The notes beneath the pieces are model-generated. The model saw only the letters and a list, made by a program, of their open reading frames with translations. It was not told the origin of the DNA and did no database searches. A stretch of 64,000 nt of DNA from Oceaniglobus ichthyenteri (GTDB taxonomy: Bacteria > Pseudomonadota > Alphaproteobacteria > Rhodobacterales > Rhodobacteraceae): the NCBI RefSeq assembly GCF_003057885.1, contig NZ_QAGK01000004.1:186001-250000 (forward strand). The letters run 5' to 3'. Shown one piece after another: positions 12,306 through 59,537 of the stretch. The position numbers and the translations under genes were made by a program. Position 1 is the stretch's first letter, and each line of letters begins with the position of its first letter.

Positions 12306-12355
12306 TTTTGGTTGCGGGAGTAGGATTTGAACCTACGACCTTCAGGTTATGAGCC
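12306..12355 (-). repeat. attL: 50-bp copy of the tRNA-fMet 3' half
   Basis: These 50 bases are identical to 59488-59537. On the minus strand they encode the anticodon arm (CAT), variable region, T arm, acceptor 3' strand and CCA end of initiator tRNA-Met, but no 5' half, so no tRNA can be made here. Similarity stops abruptly at 12356. This is the displaced 3' tRNA fragment left when an element integrates into a tRNA gene, and marks the left island boundary. Confidence 0.92.
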
Positions 12356-12784
12356 GTAACCCCTTGCTTTTAAACAATCTTTATTTTTCAACTATTTACC
12401 AACAACCCTTTGATATCTTGCAACTTTGGCTCTTGATCTTGATTGCGCCTGAGTGCGTTGAAACGGCGTCAGCAGGCTCCGGCATGTGATCAGTTGGTTG
12501 ACGTATTGTTGACGTGGATTGCGACGATCATAATCGCAGTAATCGCTTCCGAACAAGCCCAAGAACCGCAGAGCGCCTTCCAAAGTGCACGGCTAAACAA
12601 GGCCTGCCAGTCGTGAGTACGTTCGCTGGCCAAAGGGCACTCTTTCATCGCGGTGGCGCGCCTTGCGGAATAATCCCATCCATTTTTTCGCCGGTTTATT
12701 CCTGAATTCCGGCGCGCTGGGCGTGGTTGAACTTGATAGAGGCGCGAATCTACGCCTGATAGCAACTTCAACAAGGGAGTTCAG
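12356..12784. other. Non-coding island end: candidate integrase arm sites and promoter region
   Basis: No convincing gene is seen in this 429-base stretch between attL and the integrase. It holds a tandem pair, GGTTGACGT at 12496-12504 and TGTTGACGT at 12507-12515, spaced 11 bases (one helical turn) and matching TGTTGACG copies in both att-flanking blocks. These look like arm-type sites for the neighbouring tyrosine recombinase. The promoter-proximal part holds the CCGG-flanked motif annotated separately. Confidence 0.5.
12691..12712. promoter_or_regulatory. Operator-like motif upstream of the integrase, copy 1
   Basis: A 22-base motif that begins CCGGTTTATTCC and ends AATTCCGG, 72 bases before the integrase start. 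A near-identical copy (20 of 22 bases) lies at 15181-15202, 64 bases before the HTH gene. The similar spacing to both starts suggests a shared operator or promoter element. Confidence 0.5.
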
Positions 12785-14044
12785 ATGCCTACAAAATTGA
12801 AAATAAACGAGAAACTAGTTCGCAGCGCAACGCCAAAAGCGGGGCGCGACTACCAGATATTCGACAGCGATATCGCAGGCTTCGCGATCAGGATCTATCG
12901 TTCTGGCAGTCGCGCGTTCACTATGGACTACCGCATCAACGGGCGGCAGCGCCGATACCGGATTGGGCCGTGGCCGGAATGGACAGTTGCCGCGGCTCGT
13001 GAACGCGCCAAAGAGCTGCGCCGCCAGATTGATGCAGATATAGACCCCCACTGTGCACGGGATCAGCAGCGCACGGCACCCACGGTGAGCGACATGGTCG
13101 ATCGTTACATCGAAGAGCACTTGCCACGCTTGGCGCCACGCTCACAGGCGGACCAGATCTCGATGATGCGCAAAATGGTCGAACCGGCCTGGGGAACGCG
13201 GCTGGTCACAGAGATTTCCAAGCGCGATGTCGCGCTTCTACTCGATGAGGTGGCCAAGGGCCGGGCGCGGCCTCACAAGAAAAAACCAAACAATCGGGCG
13301 CGCAAGCTGCAGGGTGCGAAGCCCACACCGATCCGCGCCAATCGCCTGGGGCAAGCCCTGCGCAAGATGTTCAACCTTTCGATCGAATGGGAATGGCGTA
13401 GCGATAATCCGGCGCAAAAATTCCATCAGCGCACAGAAAACAGCCGAGAGCGCTTTCTGTGCTTTGAGGAGATAGAACGCCTTGCGGCAGCCCTGGATAT
13501 TGCCGAGGATCAACGGGGCGCTGCGATCATTCGCATGTGCATGTTAACAGGCGCACGCGTCGGTGAGGTGCGCACAGCGCGGTTTGAGGATTTTAACCTC
13601 GAGTTTGGCAGTTGGTCGAAGCCCGCGGCAACCACCAAGCAGCGCAAAATTCACCGCATCCCGATTTCTAACGACGCAGCCAAGTTGGTCCGGCAACAGC
13701 GCCTGATCGTTCCAAAAGGTAGCCCATGGCTATTTCCCGGAGACACACCGGGCCAGCCGGTGCAGGAAATCCGCCGTTTCTGGATCAGGATGCAAAGGGC
13801 CGCGCAAATCGAGGGCGTCCGCATCCACGACCTGCGCCACACGTTTGCCTCGCTCCTCGTGAGCGGTGGGGCGTCGCTGGAAATGATTGGTCGACTACTT
13901 GGGCACACGCAGATGACCACCACGCAGCGCTATGCCCATCTGATGGACACCCCACTGAGAGAAGGCGTCAATGCGGTGGCAAGTATCTTTAGCGCGCGCC
14001 CAAAACTTGTGCATTCAAGCGATAAGACGCCGAGGACTGCGTGA
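12785..14044 (+). CDS. Tyrosine-type integrase (P4/DUF4102 family)
   Basis: A 419-residue integrase with an N-terminal DUF4102-type arm-binding domain (about 1-90, GRDYQIFDSDIAGFAIRIYR), a central SAM-like core-binding domain, and a C-terminal catalytic domain. The catalytic set is visible: Arg in TGARVGEVRTARF, HDLRHTFAS (His-x-x-Arg), LGHTQ (second His) and the nucleophile Tyr in TTTQRYAHL. The ATG has an AAGGGAG ribosome-binding site. Such integrases usually recombine at tRNA 3' ends, matching the duplicated tRNA-fMet fragment 430 bases upstream. It appears intact, so excision may still be possible. Confidence 0.95.
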   Translation: MPTKLKINEKLVRSATPKAGRDYQIFDSDIAGFAIRIYRSGSRAFTMDYRINGRQRRYRIGPWPEWTVAAARERAKELRRQIDADIDPHCARDQQRTAPTVSDMVDRYIEEHLPRLAPRSQADQISMMRKMVEPAWGTRLVTEISKRDVALLLDEVAKGRARPHKKKPNNRARKLQGAKPTPIRANRLGQALRKMFNLSIEWEWRSDNPAQKFHQRTENSRERFLCFEEIERLAAALDIAEDQRGAAIIRMCMLTGARVGEVRTARFEDFNLEFGSWSKPAATTKQRKIHRIPISNDAAKLVRQQRLIVPKGSPWLFPGDTPGQPVQEIRRFWIRMQRAAQIEGVRIHDLRHTFASLLVSGGASLEMIGRLLGHTQMTTTQRYAHLMDTPLREGVNAVASIFSARPKLVHSSDKTPRTA

Positions 14045-14066
14045 TCGCAGCCCTCGGTTCGATTTT

Positions 14067-14693
14067 TCAGAGCCGGTCCTGCAGCCGCCACCAAATCGGG
14101 GCGTAGCGCTTCCGAACCGTACTGACCTCCGGCACCATGCCATCAGCGCTGTTCTCGGTGAACCAATCGAGGATCAGCTTCAAGAAGTCGTCCTGCTTGT
14201 CTGGCAACCCGTTTTCGGAAATATCGATCATTACATCCACCAGCATGGTTTCCCATTCGTATGCTGCAGGGCGCCCCTGGCCAGAATTCCCACCGGTCTT
14301 TTTCCGTGTGGATCGCGTGCCGATGCCCAGTAAGTCATTGACCTGCTCAAAATCGCTGACTTCTCCAGCGTCTAGCATCAGATCACGCAGCTGGACCTCG
14401 ATTCCGCCTACGGGGTCCGTCACATACACGGGGTCCAACGCACCCGTCGGCAGGATGCGAATGACCGCACAAGACAAGTGTATTGGATGGTCCGGGTGAA
14501 ACAGGCGCGCAACGTCCTCAGCCCGCACGCGGACAATCCCACTCGCGCGCTCAATCCCGCATTGCACGGGTGCGATCGGGACCATGATGTTCAGCCGCCC
14601 GGCGAGCGCCCAGCCCGTAATCTCGGGTAGGCTGCGCCCCCAGCGAATTGGCAACTCGGTCAAATAGAAAAATGCCCTCGAAATCTTTGGCAT
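14067..14693 (-). CDS. Unknown protein, possible element regulator
   Basis: A 208-residue protein not recognised with certainty. It opens MPKISRAFFYLTELPIRWGR, where the SLPEITGWALAGRLNI stretch could form a helix-turn-helix. Its middle is acidic, a basic GTRSTRKKTGG linker follows, and it ends RYAPIWWRLQDRL. The ATG at 14693 has an AGAGGA ribosome-binding site; the frame is open further upstream but that part lacks a site. It converges on the integrase with 22 bases between stops. Position suggests a regulator of integrase or replication genes, an inference only. Confidence 0.6.
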   Translation of the reverse strand: MPKISRAFFYLTELPIRWGRSLPEITGWALAGRLNIMVPIAPVQCGIERASGIVRVRAEDVARLFHPDHPIHLSCAVIRILPTGALDPVYVTDPVGGIEVQLRDLMLDAGEVSDFEQVNDLLGIGTRSTRKKTGGNSGQGRPAAYEWETMLVDVMIDISENGLPDKQDDFLKLILDWFTENSADGMVPEVSTVRKRYAPIWWRLQDRL

Positions 14694-15154
14694 GTCAGTT
14701 TCCTCTTTCTCCGCAGCGCCGGTGCGCTCGGCAATTCCGGCCACTGCAGTATCAGCGTGCCGGATCGCAGAATGCGGCTCCGGCCCGAAGCCGGAAGCAG
14801 TCGAGCACAGCGGCACGGCCCTGCGGCCAGTGACCCTTTGGGAAGTGCGTGAAGTCCCGAATGGTATTTTCCGGATCGGACCTCAACCATCTGTTCTCGC
14901 GCGAGAAAATCACGGCTGACGTTCGCCCTGTCGCTGGCGGTCACACAAAAGAGCGGCAAAATCCAAACCAATGTGCAGAACGCGCCGAGCGCAATACTCG
15001 ACGGTGAACAGCAAGGATATACGCCTCCGGCAACATAAGGCCCGGGCCGACCTATCGGATCAAACGGTGACCGGGGATTGATTCTGCCTACTCAGGCAAT
15101 ATGAGCGGTCACTGCAGCACCCGGAAAGCTGTGTAAGTCATTGACTTTCAATAA
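14694..15154. other. Intergenic region without a recognised gene
   Basis: About 460 bases separate the divergent 14067-14693 and 15267-15542 genes. No frame here has a ribosome-binding site plus a plausible protein. The region must hold the minus-strand promoter of the unknown regulator. The operator-like cluster begins at its right edge. Confidence 0.5.
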
Positions 15155-58987: not shown

Positions 58988-58989
58988 GC

Positions 58990-59370
58990 GCAATGTGGAT
59001 TTCAGAACGGCTCGCCACAAAAGGAGGGGCAAGGCCAGAGAATCGAAACGGCAAGATCGTTTGAGCGAAATCCTACATGCGCTGCCGGTTGATATCCTGC
59101 CCATGACACCCAGCGATCTCGGCGGCTATGTGACCGGCACTCTTGCTTGCCCAGAGATGATCCCTCCGTCGGTCAAAAGGCGGCTAAAGAAACGATCGAC
59201 GCCGTCATGACGGATTGTAATTCCGTGGCAAGAGCGATGTCTTTGTCGCTTCGGATCGAGCAGATTTTCGAGGTAGACCCGATCAGCGCCGAGACACTCG
59301 GGGAGCCTTGTTTGAATGACTTCATCCGCGCAATGCGACTGCGATCGGATACCTGTTGCCATCGTCGGGA
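58990..59370 (+). pseudogene. UPF0149/YecA-like gene fragment
   Basis: Two adjacent frames together resemble one UPF0149-type protein: HALPVDILPMTPSDLGGYVT then GTLACPEMIPPS in the first frame, and KETIDAVMTDCNSVARAM, IEQIFEVDPISAETLGEP in the next. At least one frameshift near 59165 breaks it, and the start lies within or beyond the IS5 element. It is a broken gene at the right end of the island. Confidence 0.6.
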
Positions 59371-59397
59371 ATCGATATGCCCAAAACCGCGCCCCCG

Positions 59398-59487
59398 GCC
59401 GTTTTGGTGACGTAGTGTTGACGCAAACGCGAAAGCTTAATTCCCCAGTGTTTTACTAGGGAATTAAGCTTTTGATATTATTCGGTA
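59398..59487. repeat. Homology block flanking the right attachment site, with perfect palindrome
   Basis: Matches 12216-12305 with about 80 percent identity by eye. It contains TGTTGACG (59416-59423) and a perfect 12-bp inverted repeat: AGCTTAATTCCC (59434-59445) and GGGAATTAAGCT (59459-59470), 13-base loop. The outer stem bases differ from the left copy but stay paired. It is the element-borne version of the sequence downstream of the tRNA 3' end. Confidence 0.75.
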
Positions 59488-59537
59488 TTTTGGTTGCGGG
59501 AGTAGGATTTGAACCTACGACCTTCAGGTTATGAGCC
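59488..59537 (-). repeat. attR: 50-bp core inside tRNA-fMet
   Basis: Identical to 12306-12355. It covers the tRNA from the anticodon arm to the CCA end plus three bases downstream. Recombination between the two copies would excise about 47.2 kb and leave one intact tRNA gene. Confidence 0.92.

What the first reader, a model, noticed from the sequence alone, without database searches (positions are those of the whole stretch)
12306..59537. 47-kb genomic island at the initiator tRNA gene, bounded by perfect 50-bp repeats
The 3' half of tRNA-fMet is duplicated exactly at both ends with an intact integrase just inside the left repeat. The integrase lies at the end away from the intact tRNA gene, the reverse of the usual arrangement. 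The island contains prophage pieces and a whole surface-polysaccharide cluster.
Basis: partly seen in the sequence, partly recalled or inferred. Interest (0 to 1): 0.72.

Follow-up and report, generated by a model that had tools for sequence, protein, structure and literature searches.

The report
Grounded prophage carrying a polysaccharide locus
The island is the remains of a virus that inserted at an initiator tRNA gene of a marine bacterium, lost its particle-making genes, and kept a large set of sugar-coat genes that seems to be one of several alternative sets carried by this virus family.

Summary
The 50-bp repeat at 12306-12355 and 59488-59537 is the only exact direct repeat of 30 bp or more in the window. 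It is the 3' part of the intact tRNA-Met(CAT) gene at 59491-59567.

Aliiroseovarius sp. S1123 carries the same element with the same two ends. 88% of the island aligns to it at about 90-95%, while flanking host genes match at 66-72%. The repeats therefore bound one mobile element.

S1123 has a 27.4-kb phage late module where the window has a scar joining the start of the terminase small-subunit gene to the end of the endolysin gene. The island is thus a prophage that lost its virion genes but kept integrase, att sites, early genes and a surface-polysaccharide locus.

Related prophages (Antarctobacter heliothermus, genome G091) hold different polysaccharide genes in the same slot after the endolysin. 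A sibling prophage holds DISARM genes there.

The parts
12196..12305 (+). orphan P-arm-like sequence outside the left repeat: hairpin plus arm-type pair at 12225-12242; older element's end (inferred)
   Evidence: 89% over 158 bp (12196-12353) to the S1123 element's right end; alignment; arm pair about 82 bp from the core
12306..12355 (+). left core repeat = 3' part of tRNA-fMet; left end of the element
   Evidence: exact 50 bp; S1123 homology starts exactly at 12306
12498..12515 (+). P'-side arm-type pair TTGACGT/TTGACGT
   Evidence: pattern scans, (about +140 from the core)
12785..14044 (+). tyrosine integrase, 419 aa
   Evidence: Pfam PF00589 4e-24 and PF13356 1.3e-16; phrog_1; 97% to S1123
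14067..14816 (-). conserved partner of the integrase, phrog_13283 (unknown; possible excision/regulatory factor, inferred from position)
   Evidence: homologues beside the integrase in S1123, G305, Antarctobacter
16206..17171 (+). replication initiation O-like protein
   Evidence: PF13730; phrog_345 5.9e-26
17105..17869 (+). phage early protein phrog_9306
18229..18636 (+). Fic-family fragment in the early cargo slot, absent from S1123
   Evidence: PF02661; no S1123 hit
20047..21513 (+). ParB-domain DNA methyltransferase, phrog_498
21729..23042 (-). DUF3489 protein, phrog_10315
23699..23973 (+). truncated terminase small subunit (about residues 1-92), running into the scar
   Evidence: phrog_57 matches residues 1-92 only; the S1123 protein matches over 1-188
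23967..23973 (.). deletion scar: S1123 222434-249857 (about 27.4 kb, late module) absent here
23968..24192 (+). 3' remnant of the endolysin
   Evidence: S1123 residues 165-238; phrog_17373 positions 157-224 of 224
24259..24609 (+). small phage ORF after the endolysin, phrog_26778
   Evidence: homologues after the endolysin in S1123, Antarctobacter and G402
24653..46998 (-). polysaccharide cluster: rmlA, rmlD, rmlB, rmlC, EpsG-like polymerase, glycosyltransferases, Asn synthase, flippase-like (36555-38060), DegT, acyltransferase, FdtA, hexapeptide transferase, UDP-sugar dehydrogenases and epimerase
   Evidence: Pfam; 91-98% protein identity to S1123 for the eight cluster proteins compared
47039..47440 (-). 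winged-helix regulator, homologue found at this place in the slot elsewhere
   Evidence: PF13412; homologues at 61-73% in Antarctobacter, G091, G402
47800..51424 (-). RepB-like, ParB-like and serine recombinase trio
   Evidence: 83-89% in G091
51615..52127 (+). NusG-family protein (RfaH-like role inferred)
   Evidence: PF02357 1.4e-19
52140..56126 (-). DUF218, glycosyltransferase, acetyltransferase, deacetylase-like genes
   Evidence: S1123 91.8% over 52140-56299
56960..58093 (+). Fic protein, best PADLOC match SoFic; within about 3.1 kb that has no match in S1123
59398..59487 (+). P arm of the element: arm pair at 59407-59424 and hairpin
   Evidence: 94.6% over 59392-59540 to the S1123 right end
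59488..59537 (+). right core repeat, overlapping the intact tRNA; right end of the element
59491..59567 (-). tRNA-fMet(CAT), intact
   Evidence: ARAGORN

Best explanation
12306-59537 is one integrated element: a temperate phage that integrated by its tyrosine integrase at the 3' part of tRNA-fMet and already carried a surface-polysaccharide locus between its lysis genes and its P arm. In this lineage an illegitimate deletion of about 27.4 kb removed terminase, portal, capsid and tail genes. That left a grounded prophage: integrase, both att sites and early genes are kept, virion formation is lost, and the polysaccharide locus (probably making or changing a rhamnose-containing coat) is retained. 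Shown: both ends, shared identity with a copy in S1123 that has the late module, the deletion and what it cut, and recurrence of other polysaccharide loci in the same slot. Strongly indicated: horizontal transfer. Inferred: that the integrase still excises a 47-kb circle, that the S1123 relative makes particles, and that the locus changes the surface and blocks superinfection or aids attachment.
For: Both ends coincide with an S1123 element: its homology starts at 12306 and ends at 59540, and 41,765 of 47,232 island bases align at 89.8-94.8%. S1123 flanks differ, and the host genes tested match at 66-72%. S1123 has portal, head protease, major head protein, tape measure, tail and endolysin genes where the window has a scar; its terminase is 83% identical to the Antarctobacter one identified. 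The scar leaves TerS residues 1-92 and the last part of the endolysin, so the window lost DNA rather than S1123 gaining it. Arm-type pairs lie about 82 bp and 140 bp from the core in many related sites. IMG/VR G303 has late genes, core and integrase in free-phage order, and G305 is a 65-kb copy bounded by the fragment and a full-length tRNA match. Polysaccharide genes occupy the same slot in Antarctobacter, G091 and G402.
Against: No empty site or circular junction was found; reads were not available. The 73-kb S1123 element could be a fusion of a prophage and a neighbouring polysaccharide element whose middle att was lost long ago. Of 20 post-endolysin regions fetched, only 2 showed a polysaccharide locus by my markers, so this is one of several cargoes. 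The IMG/VR copies G303 and G305 have none after the endolysin. The left repeat adjoins an orphan P arm, which the simple story does not explain. No Wzc-type protein was found in the host genome with the S1123 query (no positive control), so production of the polymer is unproven.
Confidence: 0.86

Rival explanations
1. Two once-separate tandem elements (a tRNA-fMet prophage and a polysaccharide island with its own serine recombinase) fused by loss of the att site between them, so the polysaccharide genes never were phage cargo.
For: Tandem elements at this tRNA are real: S1123 has a second 13-kb element with Wza-, Wzc- and WecA-type genes and an integrase-like gene (by sight), and Antarctobacter has several fragment sites, four of their contigs with further integrases. 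The cargo holds a serine recombinase.
Against: No core repeat was found between the phage part and the cargo in the window or S1123. Different loci occupy the same place after the endolysin in Antarctobacter and G091, with homologous regulator and NusG-like genes beyond them. G091 has no tRNA-fMet core in the 100 kb read, yet the same layout.
Confidence: 0.12
2. A phage satellite (tycheposon- or PICI-like) that by design lacks structural genes and is packaged by helper phages.
For: Intact integrase and att sites, no virion genes found, and a related prophage with late genes in the same genome (C10).
Against: Ends of terS and the endolysin are still there as truncated genes, and S1123 has the late module. 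The lack is secondary.
Confidence: 0.05
3. The two repeats come from different insertion events and the interval is a chance composite.
For: The left repeat is flanked by arm sites on both sides, as in element-element junctions.
Against: S1123 holds the same interval with the same two ends in different flanks.
Confidence: 0.02

Closest known systems
Shimia haliotis prophage 1 with rfbABCD (PMC8224337, passages read)
   Same: a roseobacter prophage carrying dTDP-rhamnose genes, proposed to affect biofilm and O-antigen
   Different: described there as related to myoviruses; only rfbABCD and one glycogen-synthase-like gene are named in the passages seen, not a locus of more than 20 kb, and no slot with alternative loci
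Viruses of sargassum bacteria with O-antigen and biofilm genes (PMC11295528, passages read)
   Same: phage-borne O-antigen biosynthesis genes in marine bacteria; the authors name biofilm formation and exclusion of other phages as possible roles
   Different: in the passages seen, 172 viruses carry such genes, 43 more than one, with at most five in one virus; no whole locus or slot described there
Serotype-converting prophages: Shigella gtr phages (PMC4924310, listing and start of abstract) and Acinetobacter wzy prophages (PMC13228068, abstract)
   Same: lysogenic conversion of a surface polysaccharide; wzy genes appear to move between prophages
   Different: a gtr cluster or a polymerase gene acting on the host's own locus; here a locus with precursor genes, transferases, flippase-like and polymerase-like genes
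tRNA-Met(CAT) prophages of Paracoccus (PMC6536676, passages read)
   Same: siphoviruses with tyrosine integrases at tRNA-Met, listed sizes 43-61 kb
   Different: the terms polysaccharide, O-antigen and glycosyltransferase do not occur in its main text; relatedness not tested here
[quoted passage not shown]
   Same: mobile carriers of rml and polysaccharide genes in related bacteria; one Sulfitobacter plasmid covers 46% of the cluster query at 80%
   Different: vehicle is a plasmid, not an integrated phage
Grounded prophages (PMC6379469, listing and start of abstract)
   Same: prophage remnant that stays in the genome and keeps useful genes (concept recalled; paper not read)
   Different: this case has a counterpart with the late module, the same cargo and the same ends, so the loss is mapped exactly

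Membership tests
tRNA-site integrative element (genomic island) | target tRNA restored at one end, its 3' fragment as direct repeat at the other | tested here: met
tRNA-site integrative element (genomic island) | full-length tyrosine integrase beside one end | tested here: met
tRNA-site integrative element (genomic island) | same unit in another genome with different flanks | tested here: met
tRNA-site integrative element (genomic island) | circular form or empty site | tested here: inconclusive
   no reads for the circle; four of five genus mates have an intact tRNA-Met copy but other neighbours, one no match
temperate phage / prophage | integrase and early region homologous to phages in phage order | tested here: met
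temperate phage / prophage | terminase, portal, capsid and tail genes present | tested here: not met
   no counterpart of the S1123 late module in the window; such genes in S1123 and Antarctobacter
grounded (defective) prophage | remnants of lytic-cycle genes at a deletion scar | tested here: met
integrative conjugative element | relaxase or type IV secretion genes | tested here: not met
   none among 42 island ORFs scanned with Pfam; some small ORFs were not scanned
phage satellite / tycheposon | lack of structural genes is original, not a deletion | tested here: not met
serotype-converting phage | phage genes change the surface polysaccharide of the lysogen | not testable with these tools
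   gene content only
RepA-I biofilm plasmid | plasmid replicon | tested here: not met
   integrated at a tRNA in a 304-kb contig; the RepB hits are ParB-like partition proteins

The most novel reading that the evidence does not exclude
A family of Rhodobacteraceae temperate phages carries large, mutually different surface-polysaccharide loci (about 10-24 kb of glycan genes in the four loci seen) in one fixed slot after the endolysin, framed on the far side by a winged-helix regulator and a NusG-like gene and, in three of the four, by a RepB/ParB/serine-recombinase trio. One infection would replace or add a whole coat rather than modify it, and the recombinase trio may help swap the cargo. A related trio lies beside DISARM in a sibling prophage of this genome. 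Loss of the late module, as in the window, then fixes the coat in the host while keeping integrase and att sites.
Probability: 0.35. Interest if true: 0.72.

Novelty: new variant of a known kind. Interest (0 to 1): 0.52.

Why it matters
Surface polysaccharides decide phage sensitivity, attachment and grazing, and how whole loci move between marine bacteria is a standing question; in roseobacters a well-known vehicle is the biofilm plasmid. Here a second vehicle can be read directly: a prophage with late module and locus (S1123), a copy in another genome that lost the virion genes, and relatives with other loci in the same slot. It gives a concrete test: does the S1123 or Antarctobacter virion contain the polysaccharide genes?

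Tried and rejected
Considered and rejected: (1) repeats from separate events, rejected by S1123. (2) Reverse polarity as an anomaly, rejected because S1123, Antarctobacter and G305 share it. (3) ICE: no conjugation genes among the ORFs scanned. (4) Satellite that never had structural genes: truncated terS and endolysin. (5) A second prophage of this family lying directly left of the left repeat: S1123 phage proteins gave no hit at 1e-8 in window 1-12200 or in the next 60 kb, so the orphan P arm remains unexplained.

Led nowhere: the 296-genome scan with the tRNA scored at most three candidates per genome and could not count fragments. The genome-contig scan gave 7 loci, so species-level comparison is thin; the IMG/VR scan gave 4, three with a core match. 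The phage collection gave only integrases below 60% identity (best listed row 30%). Nine literature searches found prophage-borne rhamnose and O-antigen genes but, within the listings, abstracts and passages I saw, no paper on prophages with alternative whole polysaccharide loci; most listed papers were not read.

Against the reading: only 2 of 20 fetched post-endolysin regions showed a polysaccharide locus; the 20 were picked from the best endolysin matches, five were cut short by contig ends, and my markers came from the loci already known, so unlike loci could be missed. G402's contig keeps only fragments of late genes before its endolysin. For G091, two of its glycan-region proteins were scanned with Pfam, one a UDP-GlcNAc 2-epimerase, the other (flippase-like by sight) without a family; the rest rests on weak BLAST similarity and sight. 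In Antarctobacter the link of contig C60 to C49 is inferred from the two parts of glmS, and its O-antigen-ligase match is just below Pfam's cut-off. The arm pattern was not tested against shuffles; a similar pattern gave seven matches in the window, three of them at the two core sites, and it missed variant pairs in G303 and Antarctobacter C49 visible in the alignment. The Wzc search in the own genome was empty without a positive control. Gene calls in fetched loci come from a simple ORF picker of mine. Names given by sight: Antarctobacter flippase and other proteins without a Pfam hit, metal transporters near C33:28 kb, host-like flank genes.
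Full report
Observation. The window is bases 186001-250000 of contig C33 of the host genome. ARAGORN finds a single tRNA gene, tRNA-Met(CAT), 59491-59567 minus. The 50-bp repeat 12306-12355 = 59488-59537 is exact and is the only exact direct repeat of 30 bp or more in the window. The two copies continue to match for 90 bp on the side away from the tRNA 5' half, 140 bp at 88.6% in all. The integrase 12785-14044 has the catalytic and the arm-binding domain. Of five genus mates, four have an intact tRNA-Met copy of this sequence with other neighbours and one has no match, so no clean empty site was identified.

One element, with both ends. A scan with the integrase brought in seven loci. 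One of them, L049 from Aliiroseovarius sp. S1123, matches the window from exactly base 12306. More of that contig shows a tRNA fragment at 211870-211919, a second fragment ending at 285169 and an intact tRNA at 298151-298240. The unit between the two fragments is the window's island: 12306-17863, 19358-23973, 23967-42567, 43398-44657, 44669-52099, 52140-56299 and 59392-59540 align in order at 89.8-94.8%, 41,765 of 47,232 bases. Nineteen of 21 compared island proteins match S1123 at 88-98%; the two Fic proteins, in window-only stretches, do not. The window's host genes at 1136-11627 match S1123 only in four pieces at 66-72%. So the island most likely moved horizontally as a unit, and both repeats are its ends.

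A deletion made it an island. S1123 has about 27.4 kb (222434-249857) that the window lacks. It codes for portal, head protease, major head protein, tape measure, tail protein and endolysin, and for a terminase 83% identical to the Antarctobacter terminase identified in that call. In the window the two sides meet at 23967-23973. The open frame entering the scar matches the terminase small subunit over residues 1-92 only, while the S1123 protein matches over 1-188; the frame leaving it matches only positions 157-224 of the 224-position endolysin profile. A search of the host genome also finds there only the part matching endolysin residues 165-238. Two truncated genes at one scar mean loss in the window lineage, not gain in S1123. 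The early region is typical of a temperate phage: replication initiation O-like, phrog_13283, phrog_9306, ParB-methyltransferase, phrog_10315.

Free-phage relatives. IMG/VR contig G303 (35 kb) has an integrase 97% identical and reads late genes, core, integrase, early genes, the order of a circular or tandem phage genome; nothing like the polysaccharide locus follows its endolysin-like region, though two acyltransferase-like frames lie in its early slot. IMG/VR contig G305 (65 kb) looks like an integrated copy: fragment at 82-127, full-length tRNA match at 65302-65380, integrase at the fragment end, other cargo. An integrase away from the tRNA is therefore the family's polarity; it follows from where int lies relative to attP.

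The cargo slot. In S1123 the polysaccharide locus lies between the endolysin and the right-hand arm. Antarctobacter heliothermus DSM 11445 has homologues of the late genes, and after its endolysin comes a different locus: UDP-GlcNAc 2-epimerase, UDP-sugar dehydrogenase, glycosyltransferases, heparinase-like, and an O-antigen-ligase match just under the cut-off. Then follow homologues of the winged-helix regulator (61-63%), the NusG-like protein (65-67%) and GlmS (85%). That glmS is cut by the contig end; a C-terminal part of glmS lies 168 bp before another tRNA fragment on contig C49, probably the same gene. Two further cases came from an endolysin search: 83 of 394 family genomes have a match at 1e-30 (at most seven candidates scored per genome). 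I fetched 20 downstream regions, five shortened by contig ends, and 2 of 20 showed polysaccharide loci by my markers. G091, on a 3.2-Mb contig, has late-gene homologues and then a UDP-GlcNAc 2-epimerase, transferase-like genes (weak similarity), the wHTH, RepB, ParB, serine recombinase (83-89% to the window) and a NusG-like gene. G402 has EpsG, DegT, rmlC-like, NeuB and ABC-transporter genes with the same kind of right-hand frame, but only scraps of late genes. Other cargo occurs in the same slot: the host's own prophage on C10 carries DISARM genes (drmB, drmA, drmMI, drmD, drmMII by PADLOC) near a related RepB/ParB/serine-recombinase trio, and one near C33:27 kb is followed by genes that look like metal transporters by sight. 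The window's own right end has a Fic protein best matched by SoFic.

Integrase arm sites and the left border. A pair of TTGAC-type repeats lies about 82 bp on one side of the core and about 140 bp on the other in many sites. Of 25 core sites checked, 17 have the P-side pair, 13 a P'-side pair and 8 both. The pattern was not tested against shuffles, missed variants in G303 and Antarctobacter C49 (alignment), and G305 has too little upstream sequence to tell; a scan of the whole window with a similar pattern gave seven matches, three of them at the two core sites. In S1123 (211870) and Antarctobacter (C60) the fragment at the integrase end lacks the P-side pair and adjoins host-like genes (by sight). 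In the window the left fragment has both pairs, and 12196-12305 resembles the element's own right end (89% over 12196-12353 to S1123). So the left repeat was probably a junction with an older element's P end. No homologue of S1123 phage proteins was found in the 72 kb to its left; a dnaE2-like polymerase and an ImuB-like protein are the next genes with Pfam matches (imuA named by similarity to the genus mates' gene beside imuB). A similar two-armed fragment sits on C3:97488 with no relative of this integrase in C3:80000-119816. I cannot say whether deletion or rearrangement removed the older element.

How it most likely works (inference from here). The phage integrates by strand exchange near the anticodon end of the fMet core, rebuilding the tRNA with its own 3' part. 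As a lysogen it supplies precursor, transferase, flippase and polymerase genes for a rhamnose-type surface polymer, perhaps under a wHTH regulator and a NusG-like antiterminator. Benefit to the phage would be exclusion of phages that need the old coat; benefit to the host, attachment or escape. After the late-module deletion the host keeps the coat without the risk of lysis. The integrase is full length, so excision of a 47-kb circle is possible. No exporter/co-polymerase was found: the S1123 Wzc query had no match in the host genome (no control), whereas S1123 has Wza-, Wzc- and WecA-type genes in its second element.

Novelty. Rhamnose genes in a roseobacter prophage are in print (PMC8224337, passages), O-antigen genes in viruses of sargassum bacteria too (PMC11295528, passages), tRNA-Met prophages are listed in Paracoccus (PMC6536676, passages), and prophage genes that modify coats are classical (PMC4924310, listing; PMC13228068, abstract). 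What appears new within my nine searches is the scale, the fixed slot with alternative loci, and the matched pair with and without late module. I file it as a new variant of a known kind.

Noticed in passing
window 12196-12305: Orphan P-arm-like sequence outside the left repeat, close to the imuA start; the older element it belonged to is not seen to the left.
   Followed up: partly
G000:C3:97488-97542 (L045 17490-17539): Third fMet 3' fragment in the same genome (96% over 50 bp), with arm pairs on both sides, no relative of this integrase in C3:80000-119816, and a 516-aa gene without Pfam match beside it.
   Followed up: partly
G003 contigs C116, C54, C32, C13 (L037-L040): Four fMet fragments away from the intact tRNA; two (C116, C54) adjoin host-like genes (by sight) and share a short flank, which fits neither a tandem array nor simple integration.
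   Followed up: no
Antarctobacter heliothermus contigs C142, C86, C119, C88, C49, C157 (L077-L082): Six further fMet fragment sites, four of those contigs with an integrase 67-69% identical to the query: perhaps a long tandem array of related elements at one tRNA gene.
   Followed up: partly
G000:C10:23717-42653 (L154): DISARM genes with both methylases near a RepB/ParB/serine-recombinase trio in the post-endolysin slot of a sibling prophage.
   Followed up: partly
L039 10373-13994: UvrD helicase plus OLD-TOPRIM ATPase pair (Gabija-like, name recalled) between a tRNA-fMet fragment and the integrase of a related element.
   Followed up: partly
window 47800-51424: RepB-like/ParB-like/serine-recombinase trio recurs with unlike cargo in five slots (window/S1123, G091, G402, G171, own C10); its role is unknown and it may mark or move cargo.
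   Followed up: partly
L044 2316-3614, L040 8251-9975 (coordinates of the strand with the tRNA sequence in + orientation, as): Frames that look like serine recombinases by sight and whose 3' ends run into the tRNA-fMet sequence in two genus mates: a second recombinase class may use the same tRNA.
   Followed up: no
window 12117-12131: GTTC-N7-GTTC, the alphaproteobacterial LexA box (recalled, seen), upstream of imuA.
   Followed up: no
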